Source: Cenococcum geophilum 1.58 (taxonomy: Eukaryota > Ascomycota > Dothideomycetes > Gloniales > Gloniaceae). From it: 64,000 nt of DNA. The notes under the pieces are model-generated. The model had not been told where the DNA came from, ran no database searches, and saw only the letters and a program-made list of their open reading frames with translations. The DNA lies in NCBI GenBank assembly GCA_001692895.1, contig KV748279.1:225743-289742 (forward strand). The letters are read 5' to 3'. Shown here piece by piece: positions 4,340 through 57,331 of this stretch (the stretch's first letter is position 1; each line of letters begins with the position of its first letter). The translations under genes and the position numbers were made by a program.

Positions 4340-4761
4340 ATGGCAAATCTCTTTAAATTAAAGATAATTAAAATAAAACCTATCGGAGAGGGACTAAATG
4401 GTTTTTATAATTTATTTAACTCAACTTATAAGGATCTAGGTGTCTCTAACTCTTTAAATGCGTCGCGTTAGATAAGTAATAAAGGTAACCGTTAATTTAC
4501 CTAGTGTAAGCTCTATTTAACGCTTGTAGAACTAAAGGATATTTTACTTAATCTAATACTCGCTCTATAGAGCCTTTCTACTTCTTATTTATTACTATTT
4601 AACGGTAGTAATAAAAGCCTTTTTAGTAATCTATTAAGACTTAATTTAGCAGTTAATTCTAACGGCTTTAATATTAAATAGTTCCTACCTCTCTTAAATA
4701 CAATTCTTTGTATTAAGCCTAACGAGATTATCTAGGAAAAGGTATACGCTACTATAATAAA
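4340..4761 (+). pseudogene. FunK1 fungal protein kinase, 5' part of the split gene
   Basis: Starts at ATG 4340 and encodes about 140 residues of the FunK1 N-terminal region, e.g. IGEGLNGFYNLFNSTYKDLG near the start and NEIIxEKVYATI at the end. FunK1 kinases (Pfam Pkinase_fungal) are large families specific to filamentous fungi, of poorly known role. The start codon survives, but several Gln/Trp/Arg codons have become stops. The reading ends at the target duplication of the 52.6 kb insertion, and the remaining gene continues at 57327. The internal copy A matches across this junction. Confidence 0.8.
4757..4761. repeat. Left target-site duplication ATAAA of the giant element
   Basis: ATAAA precedes the left end. 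The same five bases follow the right end at 57327-57331. The uninterrupted paralogue has the matching stretch, one transition different, at 28537-28541 on the other strand. Five AT-only bases could recur by chance, but their position at the exact break in kinase homology makes this less likely. Confidence 0.6.
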
Positions 4762-4764
4762 CAT

Positions 4765-4775
4765 CGGCAAAATAT
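4765..4775 (+). repeat. Left terminal inverted repeat CGGCAAAATAT
   Basis: Matches the reverse complement of 57316-57326 at 10 of 11 positions. Three bases (CAT) lie between it and the target duplication on this side only, so the exact end of the element on the left is uncertain by 3 bp. Confidence 0.55.
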
Positions 4776-4861
4776 GGTACCCTTCCAATGGCCTCAATGG
4801 TTGGTGGTTGACGCAATTGGCGCGCAGTTGAGGGCATTTGGCAACCCGACCGACTAGCCTA

Positions 4862-4940
4862 TGTCGTGTTTTTTTAACACGCAGCCTGCGCGCAACCTGC
4901 GCGCAACCTGCACGCAACCTACACGCAACCTGCAACCACA
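4862..4940 (-). repeat. Subterminal 11-bp repeats at the left end of the giant element
   Basis: About five tandem copies of an 11-bp unit of the type CGCGCAACCTG, read as GGTTGCGCGCA on the - strand. The block 4762-4950 is rich in CA and TG, so it escaped RIP. An open frame across it on the - strand is repeat translation, not a gene. The core GTTGCGTGT recurs in the opposite orientation in the right-end array at 57020-57270, as expected for inverted subterminal binding sites of a transposase or recombinase (inference). Confidence 0.55.
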
Positions 4941-4949
4941 ATTATATTT

Positions 4950-5099
4950 AGAGCCATCTACCTCTTTTGTACCAATAGTATATTTTAGATAATAAAAAAA
5001 GGCTACTTTAAAGCTATTTATAAGGCTAGCAAGGCAAATTATATACACTTCCTTATATAATCCAATATATTATTTTAAATAATATAATATAATATTCCA
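4950..5099. other. Transition from the intact left end to RIPped interior
   Basis: CA and TG become rare after about 4950 and the sequence turns to A/T runs (5060-5110). The short open frames on the - strand across 4732-5048 are repeat or end sequence and are not supported as genes. Confidence 0.4.
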
Positions 5100-6960
5100 A
5101 CTGTTTTATAATATATTCTAAAATTATAAGACCTTTCCTGCTCTCTCTGCGACAATAATATAATATAAGTATTTAGCTTTACTAGTATAGCACATATATA
5201 TAGCCAAAAAGTAGCTACTAAAAGTAGCAGATATAGGCCGAAAGAAAGGTAGATTAAGAGCTAGTATATATAATAAAGAAGCCGCAGTTATCCTATAGGA
5301 GAATATAGAAAGTTCTACACCTAATCTCCTACCAAAAACTCTACCGGCTCCTCTATACTAGAGTCCAGAGCATATATTACAAACTTTATATACTACTCCT
5401 TATTCTTAATTAAATTTAATATTGCTTTCCCGTTACTATACTAGCCATAGCTGTCCTCTATAAGGCTATAGTACTGCTTAAATTATATAAATAACTTATT
5501 AGATTTAAACCTTTTTAGCCTAGGCTTACCAGTTCCTATATTTAGGATAAAGTAATACACTAAAGCAGAGGATATATATTCTACTAAATCTAACAAACTT
5601 AGCTAGTTCCAAAAGTTAAATTAGCAAATATTATAGTAGTAGTAAGGCCCTAGATTTTCTAGCTTACTCTAGAGCTCTCCCTTTAAGACGGACTTAGCGA
5701 ACTAGTCTAGCCTACTCTAGAGCTCTCCCTTTAAGATAGGCTTAGTGGATTAGATAATATAGCCCAGCTTACTAATAAATAGCCTAAGTTAATAATCGCG
5801 TTAGTTTCGTTATCGCTAAGGCTTATAAGGAACCTCTCTCTTACATTATTGCTTAAATCCGCTATAAGGTCGTTAAGGTTATCTTTATACAGGTCCTTAA
5901 TAATTTCTATAGTTAATTAATCCGGCATTAGGCCTATAGCATATTTAATAACTACGGGCTAAAGCCGCAGCCAGATTCTAGATTACCATTTTCTAAACAT
6001 CTAGTTTTAGCCGCCTAAGAGGTTAGCATAGGCTTCTATAACGAGTTAGAGAATAATAATAGGTAGTAAAACACTAAATATATACTAACTACTAATAACA
6101 GTGCTATAAAAGTTGTCTATTCCCTTAGACCCAGTTCTATACTCCCTAATTACATAATATATTGCTATTAAAATAAAAGTAATAGTGTTGCCAGTAAGCT
6201 TTTTAAACATATTACAAAAGCAGGGTAATTAGGTAAGGCCGTTCTTTCCTCTACTATAAAATATACTAGCTATACCAGCAACTATTACGTTGGAACGGAA
6301 GCGGTTATCACTTAGCTATTAACTCTTATTAGTATTTTACTAAATAGCATAGGCAAAATACCTTTATATAATCCAGCGCAATAAAATTATAATTAGTTAG
6401 TAGTTCCACAATAAGTTTAGGCGCGTTGTTAAACCCTAGCCTATATACCTCCCTTACAATCATACGAGCCTTTATAATCACGTAGTTCCTAAAGTTCCCT
6501 ATTGCGTTAAATAGCTATATATAATATTAAGATTATTAGTAAATAATTTAATATAATATTTCTAGTATATAGATACCTTACGAGCGGACACCGGGTCAGG
6601 AATACAATTAGCTTTTTTTTATACTGCTTTTAGCTGCTTTAAAATGGCTTCTAACTATACCTTTTTCATTATATCCTTAATAAGGCCTAGAAAGCGGTCA
6701 AACTATAGGTTAATAAGATGCCCGTTATAAGTCCCAGAGTCAGTTACTAGCCTTACTAGTAAAATAGACCTACAAAGCGCAAATATAGGCTCATATCTCT
6801 TAGGTAGGTTTTCTTTTATACGTCGCCGTTATAATATCCAAAGGTACTCTTCTCTTGCCCATAGCGCGGCAGTTAGGTCAAAATCGTCTTCGTAGTCTAA
6901 CTTATCCTTACTTTCCCTGGCGCTATTCAGGTCCCCTTTAGATTAAATACTAGGTTGGTA
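5100..6960 (-). pseudogene. Unidentified protein gene relic, perhaps DUF6532-like
   Basis: On the - strand a coherent reading starts near 6960 (SARESKDKLDYEDDFDLTAA-like) and runs, with shifts of frame, towards about 5800. One stretch, from about 6310 down to 6050, has the order hydrophobic core, IASIFYSRG, IAIYYVIREYRTGSKGI, then an aromatic stretch. This weakly recalls the DUF6532 family common in fungi (low certainty). The 5100-5800 part is less clear. Two nearly identical 60-bp stretches at about 5640-5760, each containing AGAGCTCTCCCTTTAAGA, look like a small tandem duplication. No function is claimed. Confidence 0.35.
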
Positions 6961-9979: not shown

Positions 9980-11690
9980 CCCTAAGATCTCGCTTAAGAG
10001 TGTCTTTAGTGTTATAGCTTAGGTCTATTATTAGTGCTATAATTTTAGAAGCGTTAGGGGAGGTACGGTAGGAAAGACGTCTTAATTACGCGCCAAGACC
10101 AATATATAGGATTATGTAGACAGGTAACTATATTATTTAGTTATATATAAAACAATCGGTTAAATATCTTACAAGAAATAAATAAGCGTATTAGCGAACG
10201 CTTCTCTACCCGCTACACCACCTAGACTTATAAGCCTTCTCCTATCTATTTTACGTCTCCTCCGTCTTAATAAGCTCAATTTAGCACCTAGATTTGTTAA
10301 TACTTTTTATATATATATATATAAAAATTTTTTTATCTCCATTATATTATACTACGTATAATACTGCGTATGTAGCCTCTAGGCTATAGCGCTATAGTTC
10401 TATATATATAAATCCCTTCTAGGCAGCTTAACATATACTAGTAACTATATTTATTAATACTTTAAGACGCCTAGTCAGCCCTTAACTGGTAGAGCCTAGT
10501 TAGTATAATTAGAGGTTCTAACCTCCACTAAAATACTTAATATCCCTAATAAGGGCCAGAATATTATTAGTAAAAACAGAGATATTCCACTATAAGTTAA
10601 TAAGATCTTAGGTCTATCTAGCTTAACAAAAAAGTATCTAAGCTCTTAGTACAATCTTTTAAGAGAAGACACGATTAAACCGTTAAGAGAGGCAGTAGGT
10701 TAAATTAGAGTAGACCCTTTTAGTTTACTAGAATCTAGATATAGTAATAGAATTAGTATATATAAACAGGTAAGCATGCTACAATTCTAAAGTAGTTATC
10801 CCCTAACATCTACAAGGCCTATATTAGCTTAGTAATATTTTTACCTTAAGGGCTAGTAATCCGCGTGGCGTTCTTACTTAGGAGAGTAGGGAAAATAATC
10901 CGTTAGGATTAGTCGAAAAGACTAGTCACCAGGTCTTTAATTGCTTTAACTCCCAAGACTAACATTTTTTAAACGAAATATATACTTGCAATAGCGGCGG
11001 CGAGACTATTAGCCGTATTAGAATAAAATCCTCTAGAGGTTAACTTATTCTTTAAGACCTAAAGAGATTAAGATTAACTTATCCGTATTATAGACGATGG
11101 TTAAGAAACAAACTAGATTTTACAAAGTTAGTCGCTATACTATATTGGCATTATAAAAGCTAATAAGAGAGCCGTAAGTGTGCAATATTTTCTAAATAAG
11201 AAGATATCTAACTATTAATAGATTCCCGTTATTAGAACACCTTATTTAAGTTTAATAGAATATTAAAGCACTATAATACGTTATAAATAAGCCTTATACG
11301 GATCTTAGCTTAATTATAGCTATTAAGGATACTTCCTTATTTAAGAATGTTTATATTCTTAAAGACTGGCCAAATATAACTACTATGGGGCTTAAAGCTA
11401 CTGCGCTAAAACGAGTTCTTATAAAGCGTTTTATAATAATTTAAGGACCTCCAGGCACTAGAAAAACGTGGCTTTAAAGGCATTACTTAGCAATATAACA
11501 ATAGGAGATCCCCCTATTATTATCACATATTATACAAACTATACGCTAGACCAGTTATCTAGGTATATTACTTAAAGTAACCGTCTTAATACTATCGCTT
11601 ATACGGATAGACGATATTACACTACATTAGGCGCCAAGGCCATAGGGGTAGAAAGAAGAGGAAGCGTTAGGGCTCCCTCTTTTTATATCT
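9980..11690 (+). pseudogene. NFX1-type (ZNFX1/Upf1-like SF1) RNA helicase relic
   Basis: The + strand can be followed from about 10000 to 11690. Recognisable blocks include the region before the helicase core (VAIVAARLLAVLEQNPPEVN-like, about 10980-11040), then GPPGTxKT (Walker A, about 11448) and DPPIIITYYTNYTLDQL (about 11509, the family's THxALDQLL block). Known: these SF1 helicases act in RNA surveillance or small-RNA pathways and are multi-copy in many ascomycetes. There are many RIP stops, a frame change just after Walker A, and a short LINE insertion at 10307-10453. The rest of the helicase core is missing: a minisatellite begins at 11699. The N-terminal limit is uncertain. Confidence 0.75.
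10307..10453 (-). mobile_element. Short LINE 3' tail inserted in the helicase relic
   Basis: About 147 bp flanked by the 10-bp direct repeat TTAATACTTT (10297-10306 and 10454-10463). Reading the - strand, 10450 to 10345 matches the last 110 bp of the LINE at 2886-3388. It is followed by an A/T-rich tail (10310-10338) derived from poly(A). It is a severely 5'-truncated copy of the same family, partly RIPped, unlike the other copy. Confidence 0.82.
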
Positions 11691-14389: not shown

Positions 14390-15203
14390 GGCCACCTCGT
14401 GCACGGTCCCACCTTATATTACCCCACCAAAATACTTATACTTAAGAACTACTATAGTTATTTATATAAAAAATTTAATATAGCTTATTAAATAGTAATT
14501 TAGGCTTTTTATAAAATAAAAATTCTTTATTTTAAAGTTATTTTATATATAGTTTTATTTTATATTTTATATTAAAATATAGTTTTAAAATACTTATAGT
14601 GTTACGGCGCTAGTNGAAACTAGTANATATTNGTAAATTNTAGCNGANAATCNNAGACAGTTTTATATAGTTTTAGACAGTTTTAGACATTTGCTATTAT
14701 ATAACTAGAGGATTATATATAACGTTAAGTNGCGCCACCCTCTCCTTTCCTTTCTCTAGCTTTAGATNCTTNTTTATAAACTACCAATTATATAGGCTTA
14801 CGNGTCCCTCTTTNTNTNCTTATNCCTTAATTAACTAAGTCGCTAACATATAGCTTAATAATTATAATAGCTATTTATATAAAAACCAATATAGCTTACT
14901 AATTAATAAGTTAAACTCTTTATAAAATATTTTATAGTATTTTATTTTAATTATATTAAAAGTTTAATATATTAATTAGTAAGCCATATTTAAATTTTTA
15001 TATAAATAGCTATTATAGTTATTAAGCTATAAGTATTTTAAAACTATATATAAAATAGCTTTAAAATTTTAAATTTTTATTTTATAAAAAGCTTAAATTA
15101 CTATTTAATAAGCCATATTTAAAATTTTATATAAATAACTATAGTAGTTCTTAAGTTATAAGTATTTTAGTGGGGTAATATTGGTACTATATATAAGGTG
15201 GCC
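14390..15203. mobile_element. Foldback/MITE element with long inverted arms and TA duplication
   Basis: Begins GGCCACC at 14390 and ends GGTGGCC at 15203, with TA on both sides (14388-14389 and 15204-15205). The arms are inverted repeats over about 210 bp, and the centre (14849-15031) is itself a hairpin, so the original element was nearly a complete palindrome of about 560 bp. No coding capacity. The TA duplication fits a non-autonomous Tc1/mariner-class element (inference). A solo-LTR-like insertion (14600-14848) sits in the left arm. Confidence 0.8.
14600..14848. mobile_element. Probable solo LTR inside the foldback element
   Basis: 249 bp beginning TGTTA and ending TAACA, flanked by the 5-bp duplication TATAG (14595-14599 and 14849-14853). 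Removing it restores the palindrome of the host element. It contains a TATATAA-type stretch and a CT-rich tract. It carries nearly all the ambiguous bases of the window. Family unknown; it is younger than the foldback element. Confidence 0.65.
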
Positions 15204-22899: not shown

Positions 22900-25180
22900 A
22901 GGGGTTAAAGAGATACCCAAAGTAAGAGGTTCCAAGGTTAAAGTTAAGGTGTTAAATGAGATATATGCTTACGAAATCCCTAAAACATACTTGGAAATAC
23001 GCTAATGTAGCGTCTACTACAGCTAGGATAAACAAAACTGCTAATATAAGACTATAGAGACTTCGCCGGATATGTTAAGTGAGCGTAATATATATAATTA
23101 GTATATTTATATCCTTTGGAAGAAATTTAGTCTATCTCTTAGGTGCCTTTAAATATATCAACTTAGATACTAACTTTAAGCTAGAAAAGGACAAGAAAGA
23201 CTATAGCATATACCTAGGTATAAATTTAGGAGAAGTAAAAGACGCCTTATAGGTAGTGCTAAACAGCATATAAGCTATCTCCCTTCGGGAAGATAAGCCT
23301 ATAGTAAGTGGACCTTTTTATAGATATAGCTTATTCTAATTTAACTTCTAGATCCCTATAAACCTTATATTTAATTTCCTACCCCAGTTAAAAATACACT
23401 AGGAGAGTCTTTCTCCTAACTTAATTAGCGCTAGGCACCTTTAGGGGTTACTAAGATTCCTTAAAGACCATTTTGCGCCTATAACTAATAGTCTCCTGCC
23501 GCTTCTAAACCATAGCGAAATTAATTTTGATCTCCTTTAGGCCTTATTTAAACTAAATACGCATATCCTTATAATTTATAAAGGCTCGGATTAACCAAGA
23601 TGCCTTATATATAATTTAGGCAACTTTAAAACCTTACTTTTTAGCAAAAAGAGCTTTAAACTTAACTGTTACTATTTTAGCTATAATAGGAAGGCATTTA
23701 GTAAGGTAAAAACCACCCTCTCTATTCCGGAATTCCGTTCAACTATAAAAATTATATCTTTTAAGGTATTTCCGCTAGAGCGTTATAAGAGACAAGCTGA
23801 GATAAAGTAGGATCTTATTAGCAATAGCTAGAAGTTCGTGTCTTTAAGAGGCATTAACCACTATAAATATAAAGGGATTATGTTTTTCTAGACTAAAGAT
23901 AGCCCGTTAAGATTTTCTATAAGCGGCCATATTATAGTAGACGCGATAGCATTTTATCGTTAGAATTCTAACTATAGCAAGTAGCTAATTACTATAGATA
24001 TATACGGAATAAGCGTAATTGATTAAGGGACTAATTGGTAAGGCGACGTAAAGAATTAAGGTTTAGTTCCTAAGGAGATAGGAAATAATAAGTACCTAAT
24101 TTGTCTACTAACAGCCCTAGCCTTTAGTTTGGCAGATAAAAAATAGGGTTAGGCTTTTTATACTCTTTTTCTAGAGCTAGCGAATTATATGTACTAATAT
24201 AAGCACTAATAGGTGAATTTGCCGTCGCCAATATTAAGGACATTAAATGGAATGCCTTAGTATTTAAGTCACTCGTAATTAAGGAGGATAAGAAAATGGT
24301 GCTTTAAGGACTTATAAAGAGCTACTAGTCTAGGTTTAGGAAATTAAAGTTTAATAATATAATTAAAGGGAAGGGGAAAGGCCTAGTTTTCTTGCTATAG
24401 TAAGTTTTCTAGTAAGGCATTAGCTGTTTTAAAGGCTGACCGTTTTAGTGGCCTACCTAGGGTAGGAAAGATATTAACAGCTAAAGCACTTGCCGAATCT
24501 TAGAGGAGACCCCTCTATATAGTTTGTTCCCCTTTATAAGTGTATTTATATACTAGTTTAACTATAAGAAGGCTTATATAGGAGACCTTAATATAAATCT
24601 AGCCTATTTAGAATAAAAACTGGCTCTAATAGTTAAAAATGTTTACCGCTAGAGCGCTGTCCTTTTTTTAGATAAGGCCGATGTCTTTCTTATAGAAAGA
24701 ACTTTAAATAATATCCGACGTAATAGCCTAGTATCCGTCTTCCTATAATAGATGGAGTATTTCTAAGGTATTATGTTTCTTATAACAAATAAAATTACCG
24801 TATTTAATGCAGCTATATAGAGTAGAATATATCTTATACTTAGATATAACGAGCTAAAGAGACCAGTAAGAGAGTAGGTATAGAAGACCTTCCTAAAGCA
24901 AGCCGATGCTGCTGCTAATATCTCTAAAAAGGATATAGAGCGGCTTTTGGACTATTAATTAAACAAAAGACAGGCAAGGCAATATTTAAGAAAAAGTTTA
25001 GAGGCTAGTGCTAATATACTATATTAGATTAAGAACACTATACGGATTAGTTATAGCTTGGCTAAAAGTAAGGGGGAGAAACTTACATATAAGCATTTAG
25101 GTAAGGCTCTTATATTAAGCTAAGATTTTAAAAGTGATTTTAAAGGTGCTAAATTAGTTAAGAATTTAAACTTATATATA
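22900..25180 (+). pseudogene. AAA+ ATPase relic, copy A (fungal DUF7025-AAA type)
   Basis: N-terminal DUF7025-like region (about 22930-24200; a landmark is RGINHYKYKGIMFF at about 23850), then the AAA+ core. Walker A is degraded to SGLPRVGKI (24446-24472), followed by LTAKALAES. Walker B is AVLFLDKADVF (about 24655-24690), with the catalytic Glu now Lys. Next come a sensor-like ITNK, an arginine-finger region SRIYLIL, and a C-terminal lid ending SYSLAKSKGEKLTYKHLGKALIL. Known: these ATPases are expanded in filamentous fungi and of unknown role. The mutated Walker motifs and many stops make it dead. It faces the FunK1 gene at 26560-28958, with a GTAGGGG-rich minisatellite between them. Confidence 0.88.
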
Positions 25181-25289
25181 TAGATTCGCTTATATATACA
25201 GAGTATTAAATACGTCTTATAGATCTTGTAGCTGGTGGCATTATTACTTATTGCTTTCTTAAAATTACTTTCTTACTTTTGTGGTAATA

Positions 25290-26135
25290 AGACCTATACG
25301 GTAGGCAGTGGCGTGGGCAAATTGTTTATAGATCCGGGAACAGGAGAACAGAAGCTGTAGGGCATTAGTTCCTATAGGGGAGTGGAAAATATAAGCGTTG
25401 GTTCCCGTAAGGAATTAAAAGCTATAAGGCGACGGAGAAAGCGGGTATTAACCCCTATAGAGAACCGCAAGCTGTAGGAGATTAGTTTCCGTAGGGAAGT
25501 AGAAGAAATTGCCATTAGTTCTTGTAGGGGAGTAAAAGCTATATAGGAGCAGGAGCTATAGGGTATAGTTCTTATAGGGTAGTAGAAGATATAGTTACTA
25601 TATATAGGAACGGAATTTATAGGGGATTTGTTTTGTAAGGGAGTGGAAGATATAGCTAATAGTATCTATAGATCTAGGAATAGAGAACGGAAGCTATAGG
25701 GCATTAGTTCCCGTACGGGAGAGGAAAATGTAGCTATTGGCCCCTATAGGGGAGCAAAAGCCGTACGGGAATATAAGCCGTAGGGGATTGGTTCCTATAG
25801 GGCGGTAGAATATATGGGCATTGGTACCCGTAGGGGATTCGTTAGCGTAGGGGATTTGTTACCGTAGGGGATTTATTACCGCAGGGGAGTAGATCCTATA
25901 GGGGAGTGGATCCCGTAGGGGATTTGTTACCGTAGGGGAGTAGATCCCGTAGGGGAGTAGATCCTATAGGGGATTTATTAAAGTAGGGAATCGGATCCTG
26001 TAGGGGATTATTAAGAGTAAGGGATTAGTTCCTATAGGGCGGCGAAATACGTAGGCATTAGCTCCTGTAGGGGATTTGTTTAAATAGGGGACTTATTTAA
26101 GTAGGGGATTGGCTAGAGTAAGGGATTAATTCTCT
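25290..26135. repeat. Degenerate minisatellite between the convergent genes, copy A
   Basis: Roughly 17-20-bp units with the core GTAGGGGATTTGTTACC or GTAGGGGAGTAGATCC, very degenerate on the left and regular from about 25830. The same array exists inverted at 59800-60130, so it predates the duplication of the gene pair. G-clustered on the + strand. Confidence 0.85.
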
Positions 26136-26269
26136 AATAGCCTCTATTTAGATAGTATAAGGCGGCTTCTAATAGGCTAGAGAGTAGGTTACGTGTTTTA
26201 TAGAAATTTAAAGCCTATACGGGATGGTAGGGTATAGGGGCCTAGCGGAAGATTAGGTTATCTGCTTTC

Positions 26270-26545
26270 CTAGGTTTATTTAGCCTAGGCAACTTACCCT
26301 ACGCTATTTTATATGCGTTTTGACTAAGGCTACTGCCTAGCCTTAACCGCCTAAATCCCCGCAAAACTTTAACCCGTGCGGTAGAAGAATATAGGAAAAT
26401 GAAATATTATTCTTTTTTGGGTTTATTTAGCCTAGGTAACTCGCCCTATGCTATTTTATATACGTTTTAACTAAGGCTACTACCTAGCCTTAGCCGCCCA
26501 AATCTCCGTAAAACTTCACTTATATAGTGGAAGAGTAATAAAATA
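26270..26545. repeat. 125-145-bp tandem duplication at the FunK1 3' end, copy A only
   Basis: The block starting TTTATTTAGCCTAGGCAACT (26276) is repeated from about 26420. Each copy contains CTAAGGCTACTGCCTAGCCTT. Flanking copy B (59550-59690) has a single copy, so the duplication happened after the two segments separated or was lost there. Confidence 0.7.
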
Positions 26546-26559
26546 TTATTCTATCTACT

Positions 26560-28958
26560 CTACTAGCACCTTTAGATCCTTCCTTGCTTCCTAAAGCACC
26601 TCCTTTATTTAAGAAGGAAGTTTTTTATTATTTCCCTTTTGCCTCCTACCGCTTAGAAATACTACCTTCCGCAATCTATTAACCTAAGGGATTAGTGGCT
26701 AATAGTACGGCGAAAAGTTATTACCTGTATTCTTAAGAAAATCCCCTTTATTATCCACTTCTTCTTTTTTTTATCTTAGCTAGCTCTTCCGTATCTATAG
26801 AATTCCACTTATTAAACCTATTAATAACGTTGCCTTTCTTATTAGGTCTATTATAGTAAATGCATATCTAGAATAGTACCTAAAAAAACGACTTAAAATT
26901 ATGCTAAGCTAAATATATCTCGCCTAGGAGCACTCTAATCGCTATAAACGCTTTTATGCTGGTCTTGCCCTGCGCTCCTAAAGGCCCTTTTTACTGCTCC
27001 TTAATTATAAGATCGAAGTCGATTAAGAATGCTGGCTAAGAAGGATTATTATTTTCCTTGTTTATTATAAGGTTGCCTGTTAAAATGTTATATTAGATAA
27101 TGCTGGCCCGCGTATATAAAGACTTATATCCTTTAATGCCACCCTCTAGTGCAGTAAGTATTGTAGCCCGAGAGCTTGCCTTATAAAGAGGCTTTTTATA
27201 GTCCCTAGTAATAATACGTTAATATACTTAATTTAGGGTTGTAAGGCGCCTTCCGCCTTTAGGTGGAGAGCCTAAATATATACGCTTGCTAAGCGGTAAT
27301 AGGGCGTTGGTGTGGCTGGACGACCTTTTTCTACTAAAACTTCGGCCTTGCCTTATACTGATTTTCGCTCCAGCCGGTCTTAGAGGCATTATTAAGTCTT
27401 TTAGCTTATAGTTTATCGCTCTTATAATATCTAGCCCCTTATAGACGTTATTATAAATATTATCTTCTTTACCGCCTATATAAACTATCTCGTGGTAATA
27501 GTACCTAGCTATATTAACCACTTCTTTCTCTATTACCTTATGTAGCAGTTTACCTTCTTTCTTGCGCTATAGGTACTGCTATAAGTCTTTAATAACGAGG
27601 GGTATCTTAGAGGTGTCCCCCTTATAGTATACTTTCTAGTAAGTAGTCGCTTGACCGGCGATATAGCGTGCCCGCTTTATAAGTTTATTAAGGATAAGAT
27701 GCTTAGTCTGATTATTGCGCACGACCTTAATATATCGCTTGCCGTCTGATGTTAGAATAGTAGGGTTAAACCTAAGCTACTCCTTATTTATCTAGAGAAA
27801 TCCTAATATCGCTAAGGTAAATTATAATCCGTTTTTATTAATATTGAATAGTAATAATGCGATGCCTCTTACCCGGTTATACTCCTATAGCCGCATAATA
27901 GATCTATAGAGGGTAAAGCTTAGAATAAAGCGATGAGTGTCCTAAGCGGCGAAGACTTCTCTTATATATTTTCCTAAATTAAACCATGCCTGCGAAGCTA
28001 TATTAGTGTTTAGATTACTCTTTAGCTCTCCTAGTATAAGTATATACAACTAATAGCATTAAGAGCTTTCGCTAGCTATTAGATCATCCATAAAACTAAT
28101 ATCTAGCTTTTACTTTGCTATAGACCCTTATAAGGGCTGCTCGGTATATGCAATAAGCGTTTATTATATCTTTAGGGCAGACCTATACTCCTCTATAAAG
28201 CCTAAAAATAATTTAATTAGGTTATTAAACCACTTTAGGACATTAATCTGCTCTATACTTTTAGGCCAGTTACGCTAGCCGCCCTTAGCGTATAGTGGAT
28301 TGTCCCCTTCCTTATATTTCTTAAAAATGGCGGCGCTTGCCTCTTTAAGACCTTCTACTCCCCTAAAGAATGCTTTATATAAGCTAGAAATCCCCACGTA
28401 AAGAGAGCCTAGCTCCTCCTTTAGAATATAATCTACGTATTTCCTGTATTTGGACGAGTTAGTAAAGCTGCTTGTATTATATAAATATAGGGTTTATTAA
28501 ATATGGAGTGGCAGCGGTTAGGGGGGAGGCGTGGACTCTATTATAGTGGTAATAGTATTACTCTAAACGTCCTTATCCGATTCGCGATTAATAACTGTTT
28601 TTAAGAAAGGGGTGAACCGTTTAATATTAAAGTCGTTAAAATCAACTAAAGGGAGAAGTCGGAAAAGGTTACTATAAAGAGTGCTGCGGCTAGCGCTAGA
28701 CGGAAGTAGTTAAGTAGTAAGAAGGTTCTATAATGCTAGAATAAGGTTAACTATAAGATTTTTAAGCCCTATATATATTAGAGAGAACCTATAATAGATA
28801 AATTAATAATTACCTTTATAGCCTATCTAGCGTAACGAGTTTAGAGAGCTAGGGATGCCTAGATCTTAATAAGTTAAGTTAAATAAATTGCGAAAGCTAT
28901 TTAGTCCTTCCCTAATAGGATTTGTTTTAATTATCTCTAATCTAAAGAGATTTACTAT
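26560..28958 (-). pseudogene. FunK1 fungal protein kinase relic, copy A (uninterrupted)
   Basis: Reads on the - strand from the former start at 28958-28956 (ATG now ATA) to about 26560, roughly full length for the family. Landmarks: YRKYVDYILKEELG (about 28450), LYKAFFRGVEGLKE, VVNIARYYYHEIVYIG (about 27520), the Ser/Arg/Lys linker SFSRKRSSSHTNALLP (about 27340), and the catalytic region GNLIINKENNNPS then PAFLIDFDLIIKE (about 27080-26990). The HRD-type motif is degraded to YNI, while the Asp pair in LIDFDL is kept. The C-terminal GKTSIKAFIAIRVLLGE is also visible. It reads straight through the site where the other copy carries the 52.6 kb insertion. Confidence 0.9.
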
Positions 28959-44074: not shown

Positions 44075-46640
44075 GTACTAGAGGGTTAGTATAGGATTCT
44101 TATATAAGCAAGGCGACTTACCTAGTGGTGCCTTTTAATTAAATGCCATACGCCATGCATAAGGGCTGCGTGATTTTTAAAATGCTTAAGTCCTTTAATC
44201 CACTCTAAATAACAAGGATGCTTATAGCGGAACCTCTACCTAAACATTCCTTCTATAACGTGATTATTAAGATGCTTCTATAGTGTATCCTTTTTCGTAA
44301 ATAGGCGGGTCTGCCTTAGTGTTAAGAGTCGGTTATCGCTAATATAGATAAGGTAAATAAGATTAGTAAACGTTATAGGATACGGTAGCTGTATTATCTT
44401 AATACCCTCTTCCTTAATTAGGACCGCGCTCTATATCTTATCTAGGTTTTCTTAAAAAGGCAAGTCTAAGCTAATATATTCTTTCTGCCGCTTTGCCTAT
44501 TAATAGGTACCAGTATTAGTGTTACTTACACCTCTTTTTACGCCTACTATACTTTGGTCTACTTTAGACCTAAGTTAAAGTCCAATAGCCTTGCTTAGGA
44601 TCCTATTCTACTAGCTCTCTTGTTAATTATAATACTTAATAAGATTGCGGATAAACTTTATACGGAGTTTTATAGCGTGCCCTTCTTCAAGCTCGTTTAG
44701 CGGCTAAGATAGTAGTTTAGTAATAGCAGCATATTCGCGAAATTTATACTATATAGCTAAACGGGTAGGAATATGTGAGGGGATCTTGTAGACAGGGGGC
44801 TATAAGGACACGATTGGAATAAGATAGATTGGTGAGAGAGACGAATCCTTGAGGAGGTAAGGCCTCTGGGATCGTGGAGACTATATACTACGGGCACGTG
44901 CCTCCGGCACGTGACCGGCGATTATCCGAGGGGCGTCCGGGGGTTGTCCTGAGGGCAACCCGAGGTGTCCGCAATAATATCCCTTACAGAATATCCGTCC
45001 CAACGCTACTATTAAGCTGTCTTTTAATATTGTAATTATTAATGGCGTCGTGAAAATTAAGAATAACCTAGTCCTCTTTTTGTTTGCGTAGGACGTTTAT
45101 AATACTATAAAGTTTACGTCTGGCTTCGTTATAACGGTTATATAGTTTCGTTCCCTTCGCGGCGTTAATAGGGTAATATCCTCGGCTCCTGATCTTTTGC
45201 TTATATCACTCTCGTTTCTTATAAAGCTATAAAATATTAGGGTGTTAATTAAGTTCTAACTAGAATTTAAGCTTCTGCTCGTTAGTTAAACCTATAGAGG
45301 CCCGCTCGTCCCTTAAAATCCCCATTTATACGGTATATTAGATAAGGTTGTCCTATGATGAAGTCCTAAAGTAGATTAACTGGAAATCGCGCTTAATTAA
45401 ATTAGGTAAATAAAACCGTTAGTAGGTATTACCGTGATAACCTATTATCTAATTTCGCTCTTCTAGAGTAAGGGTAGCTAGAAAGGTTAGTTAATAGATA
45501 CACTTATATTAAATTAGACACTTACTATTTAATTTCCTTCCGGACGCTTATTATAGCTAGTAAAGTTTAAGCAATTATTTAAACCCGGCCACTTGGCCTA
45601 ACCACACGTAGTAATCGCGGCATTTCTGGTAAGGGAATGCTTTAGTGTCCGATACTCCCCTATAACTAGCTATTATCTTAATATCTTAAAAGATAGGTTA
45701 TTCCTCCATCTGCTTCTTAAACTTTACTTTAAAACTCTTTTTATTTGCTAGGATTTTAAGTTTAAAAATCTCTTCTAGCGAAGTATAATAGCGCCGAAAT
45801 GTATTATTTGTAATAGTAAGGCTTATAAGATGGGATAGAATATAAAAAGCTAGGATGCTTTTAAGACGGAAAATAAACCTCTTACTATAGGTCTATTAGC
45901 GCCATTCGCGCCGTCTTTAATCGGCGTTACTATATACCGTCTACCTATGCCTCTAGAATTCTTAATATACACAAGACTTACGAGGGCGATAGTTATAGTT
46001 TAATTAAAGTTTTTCGTATCGCGAACTTTTAGGATTGTGATATATTTATATAAAAGCGCTTTATTAGAGCCTCTCGCGCTTAAACTTTTAATAAGAGCTT
46101 AGGGTCTTATTGCCATGGCACTAGAGAGGAGGAGGATTGCTTTTATTTATACTCAAAAACAACTATAGCGAGGCTTCGCGTCTATTATTTAATAGGCATT
46201 AATAATTGTATATAAGTCTTACATATATATTGCATACTTTTCTTTCTCTAACGTATCTAGCTCGTATATTAGCATTAAGTAGGTTAGAATCTACTATAAC
46301 AAATTAACTAAGTTTTTTTTTTTAAAGGTTAAAGATTGCCTTATATCTTATATATTAAGTTCTGCGCTATTATTTATACTATGGCCTGCTATATCTATAA
46401 ATTTATATAGAATTCGTCTCTAATATACCTTAATCGCGCTTTCCTTCTTAATTTAAGAATTCTTTACGCGCTATTTAAGGTATATTTTAAATGTGTCGGC
46501 CATACACTAATAAAGGGCCTTGGTTGGGTTAGACTTAACTTTTAGGTAGAACCTAAATATAAATCGTTAGTATTATAAGGTAAATCTTAGTCTAAATATA
46601 AACGAACTTTTCCTAATTCTAAAACTTACGCTTAATAAGA
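44075..46640 (-). pseudogene. DUF3435 tyrosine-recombinase (Starship captain-like) relic
   Basis: Reads on the - strand. Landmarks: KKESAIKVYWRRILYKFIDI-like N-terminal block (about 46450-46390); RPxALIKSLSARGSNKALLYKY (about 46110-46050, RP-x-ALI motif of the family); DTKAFPYQKCRDYYVWLGQV (about 45640); ASGRKLNS (about 45540); then TLTLEERNxIIGYHGNTYQR and FYLPNLI (about 45490-45390), where the H-G-x-T-Y-x-x-F-Y block fits the catalytic end of DUF3435. After these come the KRERYKQKIRSRGYYPINAA region (about 45200) and a C2H2-like finger near the C-terminus (HPCYLEWIKGLKHFKNHAAL, about 44225-44165). A solo LTR (44774-44988) splits the gene. Known: DUF3435 proteins mobilise Starships. The gene points inward from the element's right end. 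RIP-dead. Confidence 0.85.
44774..44988. mobile_element. Solo LTR, family S, copy 1
   Basis: 215 bp from TGTGAGGGG to CCCTTACA with TG...CA ends, flanked by the 5-bp duplication GAATA (44769-44773 and 44989-44993). GC-rich, CpG-rich and with many CA/TG sites, so it was hardly touched by RIP. It contains GGCACGTGCC-type palindromes. An LTR retrotransposon fossil reduced to one LTR, inserted in the DUF3435 relic. A second copy lies at 58976-59192. Confidence 0.88.
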
Positions 46641-47449: not shown

Positions 47450-49800
47450 TAGTTTACTACTAGTTTAATGGCTAACTTATAAGGCGTAATAGCGTATATG
47501 CTGCTGGTTCGTAACTACTAAACAGTAATCTCTTATTAGGATTCCTTTTAAGTACTTTATTAACGTATTTTATAATTAGCTTTAGTTTCCTAGAGTTAGT
47601 AATTATACTTTAATTCCTCTAAAGCGGATTCTTATCTAAAGGTTTATCCTATTTTTTGCTGCAAAACTCATTAACTGTCCACCTTGGCTTTATTCTAACT
47701 TTTGCCTTATCCTTCCACTATATATCCTACCACTTATCTCCTACCTTAGCCAGGCCTAAAAAGATAGCAAAAATTTTTAATAAGCGACCGGCTCCCTCTA
47801 GAAATTAATCTATATTAAAGACGGGTTCTTCTCCTTTTCTTCCTTTAGCTTTCCAGTGTTTAAAAGCTTTATTTAGCTGTTTAAAAGCATCTAAAGATGC
47901 TCCACGCTAGAGCTTATTAATATACGGTTTAAATATTAAATCATTTATTATATAGCAGTCTTAGTAAACAACCAGTGGTAGCTTATTAATTACCCTCCTA
48001 TTAAACCATCGGTCTTCCCCTATCCTACGTATAATTAAGATCTTTATAATTAAAGAGAAGCATTTTTTAAAGCCCGTAATAACCTTATTTGGAAAAAAAG
48101 AGCAATTAGCTGCTCCTAGCTTTTTATATTTAATTAATGCTTTAATATTACAATTATTAATTAATTTTATATTTATGGAATCCGCCTAATTAGGGGCCCT
48201 AAAAATTTCTAAAGCGGGAATTAGACTTATAAAACCTTCGCTAGTTAGTATACCGAAAGTAAACACTACTAAAGGTCAAGAGGTGTAGTAGGCTATTTTA
48301 CTATTACCATCCTTATAAGATAGGCCCAGGCGTTAAAAGCGAGGAAATACTACTTAATTATTATATACTTATTTAGCCATTTTTATTAGATAACCTATCT
48401 CTAACCTATCTATATAGAACTCGTCAGTAAGAATCCCACTAATAATATAATAAGGACCACCGTCTCTATAGAGATTAAAAATAGTCTTATACTATTCCTA
48501 AGCGGTCCAGGTTATTGCCTAAGTTTATAATATTATAATTATAAGATACAAAGCCAATCTTAGGTCTATTATCCACCAGACCTTCTCACCTTCTCTTTCG
48601 CATTTTATAGGTTTAAGAATATCTTTATCTTTATCTATAAAATTATACTTCTTTATACTAGACCTAATAAAAGCCGAATAGCGTACGCGAACTTGTAGTT
48701 TACCTCTGGGAATATAATTATTTAGTTCTAAGGTTTTAAACTATAATTTAACGTCTTTAACTGCTTAGGGTAGTAGATTCTGTCTAGTAATATATATAGT
48801 TAGTCCTACTAGCCGGTAAAGAAAATTTCTGGTAATACTTCTCTTAACATAACAGCACTGTAGTATACTATCTATTTAACTTAGGTATTAAGTATTAGGC
48901 GGCTATAGGTATTTATTTATACCAGGGGCAAGATAGAGACTTTTATCTCTACCTTCTTAATTTTTCCAATTAAGCCAGTTAAGGTTAATCTTAGTTATTA
49001 ACACGCTAGTATACCAGATTAAAAGCATTTAAAGTATCTTACCTAAACCCATTATATCCGCGAGAAAGGTCCTACTTAGGGCTATATAATTACAAAGAGT
49101 ATAAGTAACACTAAGCAGCTAATATATCTATATAGCTTTACCCTTTTTTATGCCGTATAAGTAGAAGGTTACATCTTAAAGAGTATTATAAATAGTTAAC
49201 GGAAATAAGAGGAACTGTAGCGCCTTTACCTATAATATTAGGTTAATATATACTTCTCGCACGTCCTTTAAGTAATTAACTTCCTAATTAACCTCCTTAA
49301 TTCCATCCTCGTGCTTATCTTCTAGTTCCTTATTAGTCAAAATAGGGTTAATTAAGGCATTAAAGTAGCGGCGCTCCCATGTGCGGTTAAGATTAATTTC
49401 CCCAATACAAATTAGGTTAGGGTTATTATTTATATCCTTAAATAATATATCAATAAATATTTCGCAATTAGACTTTAGCTATTTATTATACTATCCTTTC
49501 ATCTCATCTTATAGCATTATCTTAAATGTTTATACTTTATCCAGATCCACGCCTTTTAAGAGCTCCAATTTATCTAGCAGGGGCTAGTCTTTACTACTAT
49601 AGGTCCAACTACAAGCAGTTTTAATTATAGCCGGCTATACGGCTAATAATACACCAGTAGGTATAGGTGGCGTAGACTTTAGGGTTAATATAGGCTTTAG
49701 ATTTAACTGCTTAGATATAGGTAGCGTAGACTCTAGAATTAACTGCTTATAACTACTTTAACCTAGGGCAGGTATACCTATTCTTCTCCTAGTTAGCACC
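47450..49800 (-). pseudogene. Unidentified gene relic(s)
   Basis: The - strand gives coherent pieces such as LLRALKNASLQLQRS (about 48080-48040) and DQLYILLDRIYYPKQLKTLN (about 48810-48750), with frame changes. Low-complexity direct repeats around TAGGTATAGGTGGCGTAGACTTTAG occur at about 49655-49745. A + frame open at 49381-49587 shows no domain. Family not recognised. Confidence 0.3.
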
Positions 49801-49859
49801 GGTTGTATAATATTAGGGTTAAAGTCAGACTTAGAAGTACTCTTATTAAATCTTATACC

Positions 49860-50960
49860 TATAAATATACGTTAGATAACTCTATATAATATTATACAAT
49901 CTTATATAAGTTATAAAGTCTCTTACACTTTATAATCTAATTAGGATTTTTAACTCCAATTATAATTATATTAAGTCCAGCCTTCTTTATAAAAAGCACC
50001 GTAAATACTAGGTTTATATAGTTGAGAATTAATATACTAGTAGTTAGATCTACTATAGCCCAGCTATCCCTATATTTATCCGCTAAGAAGTTTATACTTA
50101 TCGCGGCCTACAGCTTATTATATCTATAATAATATACATTAACTTTCTCTAGAGAATCAGATAATAGATGCTTATACTTAATTTTTAATGCAAATCCGTA
50201 TAGAATAGGGGCCCTATTTAATGGCGTTTTATTTAGGTAACTATATATAGCAAAGCTCATTTTATAGAATAGTATAAGTATAGTATTTAGCTATTATAGG
50301 ACTTTAATAGACAGTCCACCAAACACCTAGGCAGCCTTAGAGGCTACCCTTAATCTAGATAAATCAACAAACTGCTCTCTGGAAGACAAGCCGCTATGCT
50401 TTAAAATAATATCAGCTATTATAACCTCCACGCCTCCACGTTTATTAGTCGTTACATATCGCCATATAGATTTTTTAGCGGTAATAGCAAAAGCTTTAAA
50501 CTCTAATGGTAGATCGGATCTCTTAAACACGTGCCTATACTTAGTGTTAAAAAGGTTAAAGACTATACGCTTAACTCCATTTTATACGGGCCCAGACGCT
50601 AGCAACCTACCGCTAAACGCTTCGTTAATTTCGCTAGCATAGTATTAGAGGATTTCTTTATATGTTTTTTCGTTAATCGCGAGTCCTTACTACAGCTTTA
50701 GACCACTTATTTACAATAAGTTCTTATTAGTCGCAGTGGTTAAGTACCAACTAGAGTCTGGGTATAGCGCCGCTATTATAGTTAAGGACCCTATATATTT
50801 ATAAGCGGGTAAAAGTTTTATATAGAATAGTATAGAGTGACTTATAAAGATAGTAGAGCGGATAATATATTAGATAATTAGTAATAATCCAATAAGACAA
50901 TCCTAACAGTTATAATAAGAAGGTATGCTAATAGTGTTAACTTAAAACAATAGCGGATTC
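49860..50960 (-). pseudogene. Unidentified gene relic with a 67-codon undamaged stretch
   Basis: The - strand at 50530-50327 is open (MFKRSDLPLEFKAFAITAKK onward), and the same frame goes on with RIP stops to about 49900 (YLNKTPLNRAPILYGFALKI, then KYRDSWAIVDLTTSIL). Because the frame continues past the stop, this is part of a larger protein rather than a short gene. Family not recognised. Confidence 0.45.
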
Positions 50961-53639: not shown

Positions 53640-56600
53640 ATTCTACCACTCTTACTAGTTAGATAACGCGCGATTATAACCGGACGGTATAGATATGGAT
53701 ACCAATAAGTACGCTCCGGTGGCGGTAGAATATAAGCAGAATGCCTATTTGGTGCCTTTATGCGGTATACTATATTAGAAAAGCGTTATATTGTTATTAT
53801 TATTACTTAGAGTAAAGATATTTAAAGTAACTAAGAATATAAAGGTGGGTAAACCAATTTTATATGAGACCGATAATAATATATAGTAAGTTAGCTAGAT
53901 AATTTTAGATATTACTATATTATAATATAATAATAGCTAAAGTATACTATATAATCCTTTTTATTCGGAGTTTAATTATACCTTTTTAATATAGCTATAC
54001 TATATTTGCTGCACAAAGAGAGACGTTAACGTACTGCTTAAAGACACCCGCCTTAGCCCACTTTATAGCCTACTTAGCTTCCAATCTATAAATTAATGGA
54101 AAGAACTAATTACCGCTATTCTATTTAGTATATAAGACGAACAATAGCTCCGATTAGAGTGTAAGGTAAAATTAAATATTAAAGGCTCTAAGCAGAGGGA
54201 ATACCATATTCTTTACTAGAATGTTATAAATATAATTACCTTTCTAATTAGCTATTAACCCTTTAAAGATATACTAGTATATACACTAAAGAGACTCTAT
54301 AATACTAAAAACCACTAAGTCTATAATAAGCTATATAGCGGTAACTAGTGGTAAGAGACACAAGGTAAGCTTCCTAGCGGTACTATAGTAGTTCCTATAC
54401 TTATAGTAGTTAATAAGACCTAGCTAATAATGCACTATAGCAATAAATCGGCCTAGCCGGTATATCTTACTATCGGTAATCTTAACCAACAAGTTCAGCG
54501 CCAATAGATATCCCCTATAAATATCCTTATCGGCTTTATACTAGTTATTAAAGAAAAAGATAATAATATAAAAAGTAAAGTATATTATAAGGCAATGAGA
54601 ACTATACTTAAACGTAAGTCCTATTTTAGTATTCTAACGCTATATTCTATTAACTAAAACATAATAGCAATTAAGCATCTTATAAAAAGCGGCGTAGACC
54701 TTTAATATACGGATAATTTTATGTGACGATGTTATCTAATTATATATAGAATAATAGTAGACTATAAAGAATAAGTGCTGCTTATAGGTGTTAAAAGCCA
54801 ACAGCATTGTACTATATACTAGGTTCCCCCTCTAAAGCGTAAGAACTTAACTAAGAAATAATACCCGCTACGTACCTATAAGGAGACAAGAAGATAGATT
54901 AAACGCCAGAAACTAGAGAATATTCTTTTATTCTTAGATAACTGGGTATACCTAGTAGAATATTTTACGTGGCACTATCGCCTATTTAATATCCATAAGG
55001 GCATAATAGTAGATGTTCTATATTAGCTTCTAAAGGGTATCGTTATATAACTTATTAAATAGGTATAGAAACTGGTAGGCAATATTATCTAGCCAAAAAA
55101 AAAGAGAAGAGGGATAAAGATAACTATAACAAATATATCTGCGGAGGCTTAGCTTAATTAGCGTTTTAGATAAGTCCTAGCTTTTATAGGGCTAAAATGG
55201 TTTAATAACCTGTCATTTAGTAAAGTTACTTAATAGACAGGTAATAAATAAAAAGCCATAGTTCGTTAACTTGTCGCTATGCTAGCCCCACTGCTGTTAT
55301 CTAGGGAACTATATACTATGCATTTTATAAGAGCCGTATACAACTTTATTATTATAGCTTAGTACCGCACCCATAATAAGGAGACACTATAATATATACA
55401 CCACGCCCTATATCAAATTAATATACTTAAAGGCGTGTTTTAAAGTTTCCGTCTAAAGGTAAAGGATTCTAATATAGGCCATTTTAATATATCAAAATTC
55501 CATACCTTTATATATTTTAAGGAAAATATCCGCCTATACGGATATGCAGATAGGTACTACACTAGTGCAAATAGCGAAGCTGGACACCGTTACATTATTA
55601 AGGCGTTTTATAACTTAATAAATAAATAGGATTCGCTATCTTAAATCTACTCTTACAATTTAAGACGGGTAGCAGTACTAGTAATAGAAGACGAAATAGC
55701 TTTTATAAATAGTAATTCTATACCACAGTCTTCCCAGCGTCTAAAGGTGTAGGCTACTTAACCAATATAGCATTTAGCAGTTGCAAAGCTTTGGTAGCCT
55801 TTGGAAGATATAAATAGGGCAACAGATCTTATCTAGAGGCGTCTTAGGTTAAAGACGTGGCTTTATATATCTTATATAGCAAACTACTACAAAATCCCAG
55901 GGTTTCTAGACGGCATTGTGGTATTTATCCGAGAGTATAGGCGAAAACTACAAGGCGAATGTACCTAGAACTCTAATATGGACCGGAAAGAGAAGGACCC
56001 CTTATAGGTTAAGTGCCTACTTATTAAAATATATCTATCTATTCGCTATTAGAAACAAGACGGAAAAAATATAACTAACCTTAAGGGCCAAATTAGTGAG
56101 GTAGTACGTTGCACACCAAATTGGCAATATTTTAACTAGTAGAGGCGTAATTATGTATGGGTCCAGGAGTATATAGATAACAGCAACCGTATTAGAAAGG
56201 GCCGCACGCTATTAGGTAGAAGACTTATAGGCCAGCTTTAGCTAATTGTTACTATTCTAGATATTAAAAGGTTAGATAAGTATGGTGTATACATGCAGTA
56301 TACTAGAGCTATAGTAGAGCTGCTTCAGCCATTAAATCGTGGACTGCCGCATCCAACACACGGCATAGTTAAGGTGAAAAGGTGGCCGCGCCCGAGCGTA
56401 AATACTAGGTAAGTACTTAGAGGTAGTCGCTTTTATTTAATGCCATCTATTCTACAAAGCGCGCATATTATTCTAGCCGCTACTTCTTGTCTAGATTTAT
56501 ACTACGTCAATAATTATATTAATTAGGACTACTATAATACTCTGTACTCGGACAACTTTCTTAAAGAAGGAACTCGCATCGCGTTATTATATAGAAGCTA
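53640..56600 (+). mobile_element. Plavaka (CACTA-like) DNA transposon, transposase relic
   Basis: The + strand carries the Plavaka/KDZ-like transposase order: LYSGNxWQEIQGKLPSG-like (about 54335), PVYLTIGNLNQQ (about 54460), IGFIPV, KAMRTILK (about 54590), QRCYLIIYRIIVDYKEQVLL (about 54725-54780), a CTI-x-QVPPL zinc-like block (about 54815), then FTWHYRLFNIHKGIIVDVLY (about 54963-55020, the family's HxLxKG block). The part after 55480 includes GHFNISKFHTF and SANSEAGHRYIIKAFYNL, also typical. Downstream to 56600 the reading stays coherent (C-terminal domain). Many RIP stops and a few frame changes; terminal inverted repeats not found. Lies inside the giant element near its right end. Confidence 0.85.
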
Positions 56601-56639
56601 GGATAAATAGTAAAAGCAGCTAAGCTAGCATAGAACCTA

Positions 56640-56885
56640 TAATATATAATATAATAATAAACCTATATAAGACTATATAGGACTATATAAGATTATATAA
56701 GATTATATAAGATTATATAAGATTATATAAGATTATATAAGATTATATAAGATTATATAAGATTATATAAGATTATATAAGATTGTATAAAATTATATAA
56801 GATTATATAAGATTGTATAAGATTATATAAGATTATATAAGATTATATAAAATTGTATAAAATTATATGAGATTATATATAATAT
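56640..56885. repeat. (GATTATATAA)n decamer array
   Basis: About 20 copies of the 10-bp unit GATTATATAA/GACTATATAA from about 56672 to 56885, with G/A and T/C variants. Degenerate sequence of the same kind occurs at 49870-49925. Confidence 0.9.
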
Positions 56886-57019
56886 ATATTATAAGCTAGC
56901 ATACTACAGGCTAAGAAAATAGTAAAAATTTATTTATACAATTAGCATATAACTTTAAAATAATATATTACATTACCTTAATTGCATGTTAAGGAATATG
57001 CAGTTGGCTTTTAAAGTTG
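56886..57019. other. AT-rich spacer
   Basis: Nothing recognised between the decamer array and the right-end minisatellite. Confidence 0.3.
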
Positions 57020-57270
57020 TTAAGTAGGTTAACTACGTGTTATTTAACTTTTAAATATATTAAGTTAGTTAAGTTAAATATTAAGTTGGTTAATTGCGTA
57101 TTAAGTTAGTTAAGTTAAATATTAAGTTGGTTAATTGCGTGTTAAGTTAGTTAAGTTAAATATTAAGTTGGTCAATTACGTGTTAAGTTAGTTAAGTTGC
57201 ATATTAAGTTAGTTAATTGCGTGTCAAGTTAGTTAAGTTATATATTAAGTTGGTCAATTACATGTTAATT
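57020..57270 (+). repeat. Minisatellite (about 40-bp unit) next to the right end of the giant element
   Basis: Five to six copies of a roughly 40-bp unit built from TTAAGTTAGTTAAGTT, TTAAGTTGGTTAATTG and CGTGT. Each unit includes ATTGCGTGT or a mutated form of it. This resembles GTTGCGTGT of the left subterminal array in inverted orientation. No coding sense was seen. Confidence 0.6.
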
Positions 57271-57315
57271 ATGTGAAACGCGCTAAACAAAGTCTACTTG
57301 AATCTCATCCTGCGA

Positions 57316-57326
57316 ATATTTTCCCG
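57316..57326 (-). repeat. Right terminal inverted repeat, ATATTTTCCCG on the + strand
   Basis: Inverted partner of 4765-4775. The roughly 50 bp inside it (57270-57315) keep several CA and TG dinucleotides, as the left end does, unlike the heavily mutated interior. Confidence 0.55.
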
Positions 57327-57331
57327 ATAAA
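57327..57331. repeat. Right target-site duplication ATAAA of the giant element
   Basis: Partner of the ATAAA at 4757-4761. Kinase homology to the internal copy starts exactly here and continues rightwards. Confidence 0.6.

What the first reader, a model, noticed from the sequence alone, without database searches (positions are those of the whole stretch)
4757..57331. A 52.6 kb Starship-sized insertion splits a FunK1 kinase gene
The two halves of one kinase gene, both on the + strand, lie 52.6 kb apart and meet at the same codon. The inserted block has a 5-bp ATAAA duplication, inverted terminal CGG(C/G)AAAATAT and a DUF3435 recombinase relic inside. An uninterrupted paralogue within the insert gives the pre-insertion sequence. 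Family knowledge: Starships carry DUF3435 captains. Inferred: a RIP-killed giant element not delimited before.
Basis: partly seen in the sequence, partly recalled or inferred. Interest (0 to 1): 0.92.

Follow-up and report, generated by a model that had tools for sequence, protein, structure and literature searches.

The report
Giant Plavaka-type insertion, not a Starship
A 52.6 kb block of decayed mobile DNA really does split a fungal kinase gene, but its ends and its end-most transposase look like a Plavaka (CACTA-like) cut-and-paste transposon rather than a Starship, and how much of the block moved in at once is not known.

Summary
A FunK1-type kinase gene is cut at 4761/57332; the pieces join in frame, and an uninterrupted copy inside the block (29277-26875, minus) shows the pre-insertion order. 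The block has matched inverted ends and a short target duplication.

The Starship label is not supported. The DUF3435 relic (45011-45856, minus) lies 11.5 kb from the nearer end. The recognised gene next to the right end is a Plavaka transposase relic (54175-55044, plus; Pfam E 1.4e-34). The ends fit Plavaka: left CATCGGCAAAATAT; right, read inward, TATCGGGAAAATAT, whose outermost base differs by a RIP-type change. The duplication is then AA, and the reported ATAAA is the terminal ATA plus AA. Published PlavakaB ends are CATCA..TGATG with 2-3 bp duplications (PMC12730594).

Nearly all of the block is RIP-mutated; the outermost 180 bp (left) and 60 bp (right) are not. Whether 52.6 kb moved as one unit, or a smaller Plavaka element swelled by later insertions, cannot be settled without other genomes. 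Amoebidium has 'Plavaka giant repeats' up to 50 kb with tyrosine recombinases (PMC11244446), so this is probably a variant of a known kind.

The parts
4760..4761 (.). left copy of the target duplication AA (or the last 2 bases of a 5-bp ATAAA, 4757-4761)
4762..4775 (+). left terminal inverted repeat CATCGGCAAAATAT
4776..4940 (.). left subterminal region with 11-bp tandem repeats (CACGCAACCTG, 4878-4934) and no RIP signature
6082..6354 (-). DUF6532 relic (coding-like up to about 6.9 kb), the recognised coding relic nearest the left end
   Evidence: Pfam E 7.9e-6
10823..11068 (+). ZNFX1-domain relic
   Evidence: Pfam E 5.9e-8
14390..15203 (.). nested fold-back element, arms about 170 bp, TA on both sides, holding 16 of the 17 Ns
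   Evidence: limits set by eye
23302..29578 (-). inner copy of the host FunK1 plus DUF7025 block (kinase 26.8-29.3 kb minus; DUF7025 23496-23783 plus)
44778..44989 (+). MITE-like repeat (212 bp) just downstream of the DUF3435 relic; second copy (214 bp) at 58980-59193 in the outer kinase block
45011..45856 (-). DUF3435 tyrosine-recombinase relic (profile 99-363 of 418), not terminal
   Evidence: Pfam E 2.5e-27
47532..49868 (-). long coding-like relic of unknown family, upstream of DUF3435
   Evidence: codon model (part of it was in the training set); no Pfam hit
54175..55044 (+). Plavaka transposase core (coding-like frame about 53812-56577), the recognised gene nearest the right end
   Evidence: Pfam E 1.4e-34
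57060..57268 (.). right subterminal 41-bp tandem repeats
57316..57329 (-). right terminal inverted repeat, read inward TATCGGGAAAATAT
57330..57331 (.). right copy of the target duplication AA (or the end of ATAAA, 57327-57331)
4027..4761 (+). left piece of the split FunK1 gene and its upstream region (assigned by alignment to the paralogue, not by a Pfam hit)
57332..58975 (+). right piece of the split FunK1 gene

Best explanation
The outer ends belong to a Plavaka-type TIR transposon (CACTA/EnSpm-like DDE transposase), which inserted once into a FunK1 kinase gene by cut-and-paste. The transposase binds the ends CATCGG[C/G]AAAATAT, perhaps with their repeated subterminal sites, cuts, and joins them to a staggered cut that left a 2-bp AA duplication (or 5-bp ATAAA). 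The locus was then silenced by RIP, which broke the transposase and the other genes. The DUF3435 recombinase is a passenger or a nested relic, not the captain. Shown: split gene, in-frame junction, matched ends, Plavaka relic just inside one end, RIP. Inferred: that this transposase made the insertion, the 2-bp reading of the duplication, and the order of events. Not decided: whether all 52.6 kb arrived together.
For: Gap-free in-frame junction against the uninterrupted copy. A Plavaka transposase hit in 1 of 30 six-frame chunks, E 1.4e-34, its coding-like frame ending about 0.75 kb from the right terminus. Ends matching 12 of 14, or 13 if the terminal CpA-to-TpA change is allowed; at least 12 in 11 of 20,000 random draws. 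Published PlavakaB ends CATCA..TGATG with 2-3 bp duplications, and 2-5 bp with CA..TG ends in most cases for the wider clade (PMC12730594: outline, passages and one section). 6-mers repeated at the left end recur inverted at the right end more than in any of 5,004 other tiles (5 against at most 4). TTAACACGCA occurs once at each end, inverted, and nowhere else (found by looking, so weak). No reverse transcriptase, integrase or other DDE transposase domain at E 0.05 or below in the six-frame Pfam scan.
Against: The right end departs from CAT..ATG in its last base, and the fifth terminal base is G, not A, so the PlavakaB fit is partial. The subterminal signal is weak: with 5-mers 23 of 5,004 tiles do as well, no repeated left-end 7-mer recurs, and Smith-Waterman beyond the TIR is no better than chance (535 of 1,000 shuffles and 1,912 of 2,851 random pairs reach it, and the direct orientation scores higher, 23 against 20). 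I recall no fungal Plavaka of 50 kb. No second copy of these ends was available to prove the family.
Confidence: 0.68

Rival explanations
1. An ordinary Plavaka element of perhaps 5-12 kb (size recalled, not tested) inserted in the kinase, and later nested insertions and duplications between its two ends swelled it to 52.6 kb. The FunK1 block, DUF3435 and the small repeats are latecomers. This is a rival on size only.
For: Nested small elements are present: an 814-bp fold-back element with TA on both sides, a 212-bp MITE-like repeat, and two short repeats shared with the flank. The inner kinase block duplicates the host locus. Coding relics near the two ends (DUF6532, Plavaka) would make a normal-sized element.
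Against: No retrotransposon or second DDE transposase domain turned up at E 0.05 or below to account for about 45 kb of infill. The nested elements identified amount to about 1 kb plus the 6.3 kb block.
Confidence: 0.45
2. A Starship: the DUF3435 recombinase moved the block by site-specific integration.
For: DUF3435 relic inside; size; the literal 5-bp ATAAA duplication.
Against: The captain is 11.5 kb from the nearer end, with a 779-codon coding-like relic and a Plavaka gene between. No DUF3723, patatin, NLR or ferric-reductase domain at E 0.05 or below. The ends carry matched TIRs next to a DDE-type transposase.
Confidence: 0.08
3. The outer ends belong to another TIR superfamily with 5-bp duplications, and the Plavaka relic is a nested stranger.
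For: A 5-bp ATAAA is literally present; the right end is CCCG on that reading.
Against: It leaves an unpaired CAT at the left end only. No other DDE transposase was found at E 0.05 or below. Plavaka lies beside the right end.
Confidence: 0.15
4. Assembly misjoin or rearrangement between two kinase paralogues rather than an insertion.
For: The 4435-4745 patch is more diverged than its neighbours on both sides.
Against: In-frame junction, target duplication and matched inverted ends at both breaks; no long run of N.
Confidence: 0.03

Closest known systems
Plavaka DNA transposons, PlavakaB lineage (CMCT clade; PMC12730594)
   Same: PF18759 transposase; CATC.. left end; inverted ends; a 2-bp duplication fits
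   Different: 52.6 kb between the ends; fifth terminal base G, not A; right terminal base differs; no TET/JBP domain at E 0.05 or below
Amoebidium 'Plavaka giant repeats' (PMC11244446)
   Same: up to 50 kb; [quoted passage not shown] tyrosine recombinase genes inside
   Different: there tandem clusters of intron-poor genes in a protist, highly methylated; here a RIP-mutated fungal locus with one recombinase relic, and both termini and the target gene are defined
Starships (for example Sanctuary, PMC12506042)
   Same: DUF3435 present; target duplication; large size
   Different: captain not at the edge; no Starship accessory families seen; Plavaka transposase and TIRs at the ends

Membership tests
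Starship | DUF3435 captain as first gene at the 5' edge (about 350 bp from the edge in Sanctuary) | tested here: not met
   relic at 45011-45856, 11.5 kb from the right end and 40 kb from the left; definition from PMC12506042 passages
Starship | accessory families (NLR, patatin-like, ferric reductase, DUF3723) | tested here: not met
   none at E 0.05 or below in six frames with X at stops; sensitivity limited by RIP
Starship | DUF3435 gene present | tested here: met
Starship | presence/absence between strains | not testable with these tools
   no genome held
Plavaka | PF18759 transposase domain | tested here: met
   E 1.4e-34, profile 35-317 of 325
Plavaka | PlavakaB termini 5'-CATCA..TGATG-3' | tested here: inconclusive
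   left CATCG; right end read inward TATCG
Plavaka | 2-3 bp target duplication | tested here: inconclusive
   AA fits; ATAAA also fits
Plavaka | C(2)C and H(3-4)H between second D and E; place in the CMCT tree | not tested
   decayed frame; no reference proteins on hand
Plavaka giant repeat (Amoebidium type) | block of tens of kb flanked by a Plavaka transposase | tested here: met
   description from PMC11244446 passages; that the block is one unit is not shown
Plavaka giant repeat (Amoebidium type) | many tyrosine recombinase genes inside | tested here: inconclusive
   one DUF3435 relic found
[quoted passage not shown]
   few coding relics recognisable

The most novel reading that the evidence does not exclude
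Fungi have a second kind of giant cargo-carrying transposon besides Starships: 50-kb Plavaka elements that carry a tyrosine recombinase together with kinase, DUF7025 and ZNFX1-type genes, the fungal counterpart of Amoebidium's Plavaka giant repeats. They move by a CACTA-like DDE transposase and are silenced by RIP nearly everywhere except at the transposase-binding ends.
Probability: 0.25. Interest if true: 0.75.

Novelty: new variant of a known kind. Interest (0 to 1): 0.5.

Why it matters
This insertion has both ends defined and a DUF3435 relic inside, yet its end-most recognised gene is a Plavaka transposase. If the whole block moved at once, cargo transport in fungi is not a monopoly of tyrosine-recombinase captains. 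Even if it did not, it gives a delimited Plavaka-like insertion with an ancestral-site paralogue, and a warning for Starship annotation by domain alone.

Tried and rejected
Tried: searching the window's own genome (none held). A relative of the Plavaka relic in viral contigs: 5 pattern stretches, none confirmed. The left-end 18-mer in viral contigs: 5 exact matches, presumed chance and not looked at. tRNA and Rfam: 0 and 0. PDB by sequence for four relic frames at E 0.1 or below: 0 hits in three, and one E 0.069 hit to a receptor fusion, dismissed. By eye I thought 42.6-43.8 kb resembled a BTB protein and 48-50 kb a SNF2 helicase; Pfam and PDB gave nothing, so neither is claimed. Similarity of the two subterminal regions by Smith-Waterman: not above chance. 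They share 11 9-mers, reached by 45 of 1,873 random pairs, but 9 of the 11 are AT-only words. An own TIR of the FunK1 block: none seen by eye. An exact-TIR scan for nested elements gave 110 pairs; of the 40 printed, 28 came from the inverted kinase-block copies, and the rest I took as the fold-back element or chance.

Limits: the six-frame Pfam scan used 30 long chunks with X at stops and can miss short or heavily mutated domains. In the localising scans I chose frames by heuristics, so only 6 of the 30 long chunks and 20 shorter pieces were scanned singly. The codon model was trained on the relics it then marks.

Full report
What was checked. The window is RIP-mutated in nearly every 500-base tile: TpA is in excess of ApT and CpA/TpG are depleted. 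No genome is held for it, so the work rests on the window itself plus papers. That it is fungal is inferred from RIP and from the fungal families found.

The split gene. Pkinase_fungal was hit in one chunk each, taken from frame and position to be the right piece and the inner copy; the left piece is assigned by alignment only. Joined flanks align to the inner copy at 29277-26875 as one run (joined one base off). With the join at 4761/57332 the junction loses and gains nothing and the frame continues, with small gaps a little to the left. The paralogous unit is larger than the kinase: about 6.3 kb, 3829-4761 plus 57332-62337 outside and 23302-29578 inside. It holds a DUF7025 relic on the opposite strand, E 2.2e-15 inside and only E 0.12 outside at 61934-62143. 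Differences between the copies are mostly transitions: 107 transitions and 2 transversions in 903 sites over 57332-58234, and 170 and 12 in 1,872 over 60459-62330; 58 and 110 of these transitions are in CpA/TpG context. The copies were thus close to identical there before RIP. One patch breaks this rule: 4435-4745 has 41 transversions in 311 sites, and 4746-4759 has 1 in 14. The divergence runs up to, or to within about 15 bp of, the insertion. Gene conversion that stopped at the inserted block would explain it, but this is inference.

The ends. CGGNAAAATAT is found exactly twice, inverted, at the two breaks. Extending outward, the left end reads CATCGGCAAAATAT and the right end, read inward, TATCGGGAAAATAT. 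At up to 2 mismatches to the left 14-mer the only other place in the window is 6348 (+). The outermost base of the right end differs by C to T before A, the usual RIP change. With that reading the ends are symmetric, but for one C/G position, and the duplication is AA. Without it the duplication is ATAAA and the left end has an unpaired CAT. Both readings give the same empty site. A match of at least 12 of 14 at random paired positions came up in 11 of 20,000 draws. The outer 180 bp at the left and 60 bp at the right lack the RIP signature while the host sequence just outside is mutated. Ten of 2,128 180-bp tiles have a substrate index as high as the left end.

The contents. Six-frame Pfam scans and localising scans found: DUF6532 at 6082-6354 (-), ZNFX1 at 10823-11068 (+), the kinase plus DUF7025 block, DUF3435 at 45011-45856 (-) and Plavaka transposase at 54175-55044 (+). 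Weak hits to GndA (E 0.024), TcaA_2nd (0.04), MgtE_N (0.013 and 0.0025), SHQ1 (0.68) and, in the right flank, HTH_23 (0.11) I take as chance or unproven; all but TcaA_2nd, whose cut-off was not shown, are below their curated cut-offs. A codon model trained on these relics marks Plavaka coding over 53812-56577 and an unnamed relic over 47532-49868 (-). No reverse transcriptase, integrase or other DDE transposase reached E 0.05. Nested small elements are visible: a fold-back element at 14390-15203 with TA on both sides and a 212-bp repeat at 44778-44989, whose second copy sits in the outer kinase block at 58980-59193.

What it most likely is. The right end lies beside a Plavaka transposase. Kojima (PMC12730594; outline, passages and one section seen) places Plavaka with CACTA/EnSpm, gives PlavakaB ends CATCA..TGATG with 2-3 bp duplications, and gives CA..TG ends in most cases with 2-5 bp for the clade. 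The left end here begins CATC. [quoted passage not shown] here DUF3435 is 11.5 kb from the nearer edge, behind other genes. So the insertion works like, and is probably, a Plavaka element. The terminal motif and duplication tests are inconclusive in detail, so I hold this at 0.68.

Size. Whether 52.6 kb moved together is open. For: no large foreign element was recognised in the interior. Against: small nested elements and a copy of the host block are there, and ordinary Plavaka elements are smaller (recalled). [quoted passage not shown] A Marasmius oreades element library, from a genome rich in KDZ and Plavaka elements (PMC8290104, passages), reaches about 42 kb, but the passage seen does not say which element (PMC9674265). 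The shared pairing of Plavaka and a tyrosine recombinase is striking, but DUF3435 genes are common in fungal repeats (recalled), so it may be chance.

Literature. In the held library 11 papers mention Plavaka (10 listed); I saw passages of six (PMC12730594, PMC8290104, PMC11075540, PMC9674265, PMC11244446, PMC8955403). No paper there holds both Plavaka and Starship, both 'giant transposon' and Plavaka, or both FunK1 and DUF3435. Three papers holding CACTA, giant, cargo, fungal and Starship were seen only as a listing. FunK1 is a fungal kinase family with lineage-specific expansions and unknown role (PMC3203195, passages). These searches cover openly licensed PubMed Central papers only.

Mechanistic note, inference. 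Unmutated ends beside a mutated interior would be expected if only elements with intact transposase-binding ends can still be moved, or if RIP misses short diverged ends. Nothing here separates the two.

Noticed in passing
4435-4745: Patch of the split kinase with 41 transversions in 311 sites, running to or near the insertion, while sequence on either side is near-identical to the paralogue apart from transitions: a gene-conversion-like mosaic.
   Followed up: partly
4762-4940: Left terminal 180 bp lacks the RIP signature although host and interior are heavily mutated.
   Followed up: partly
44778-44989 and 58980-59193: MITE-like repeat, 89% alike, with 5-6 bp direct repeats at its ends by eye; one copy beside DUF3435, one in the outer kinase block and absent from the inner block.
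   Followed up: partly
14390-15203: 814-bp AT-rich fold-back element holding 16 of the window's 17 Ns.
   Followed up: partly
31671-32039 with 1240-1611; 10328-10448 with 3261-3380: Short inverted-orientation repeats shared between the insert and the left flank, 83% and 89% alike.
   Followed up: partly
43766-43823: Eight copies of a 7-bp CCTTACC repeat downstream of the DUF3435 relic.
   Followed up: no
62299-62589: 96-codon open frame at the end of the duplicated block, helix-turn-helix-like (HTH_23 E 0.11), perhaps a transposase start.
   Followed up: partly
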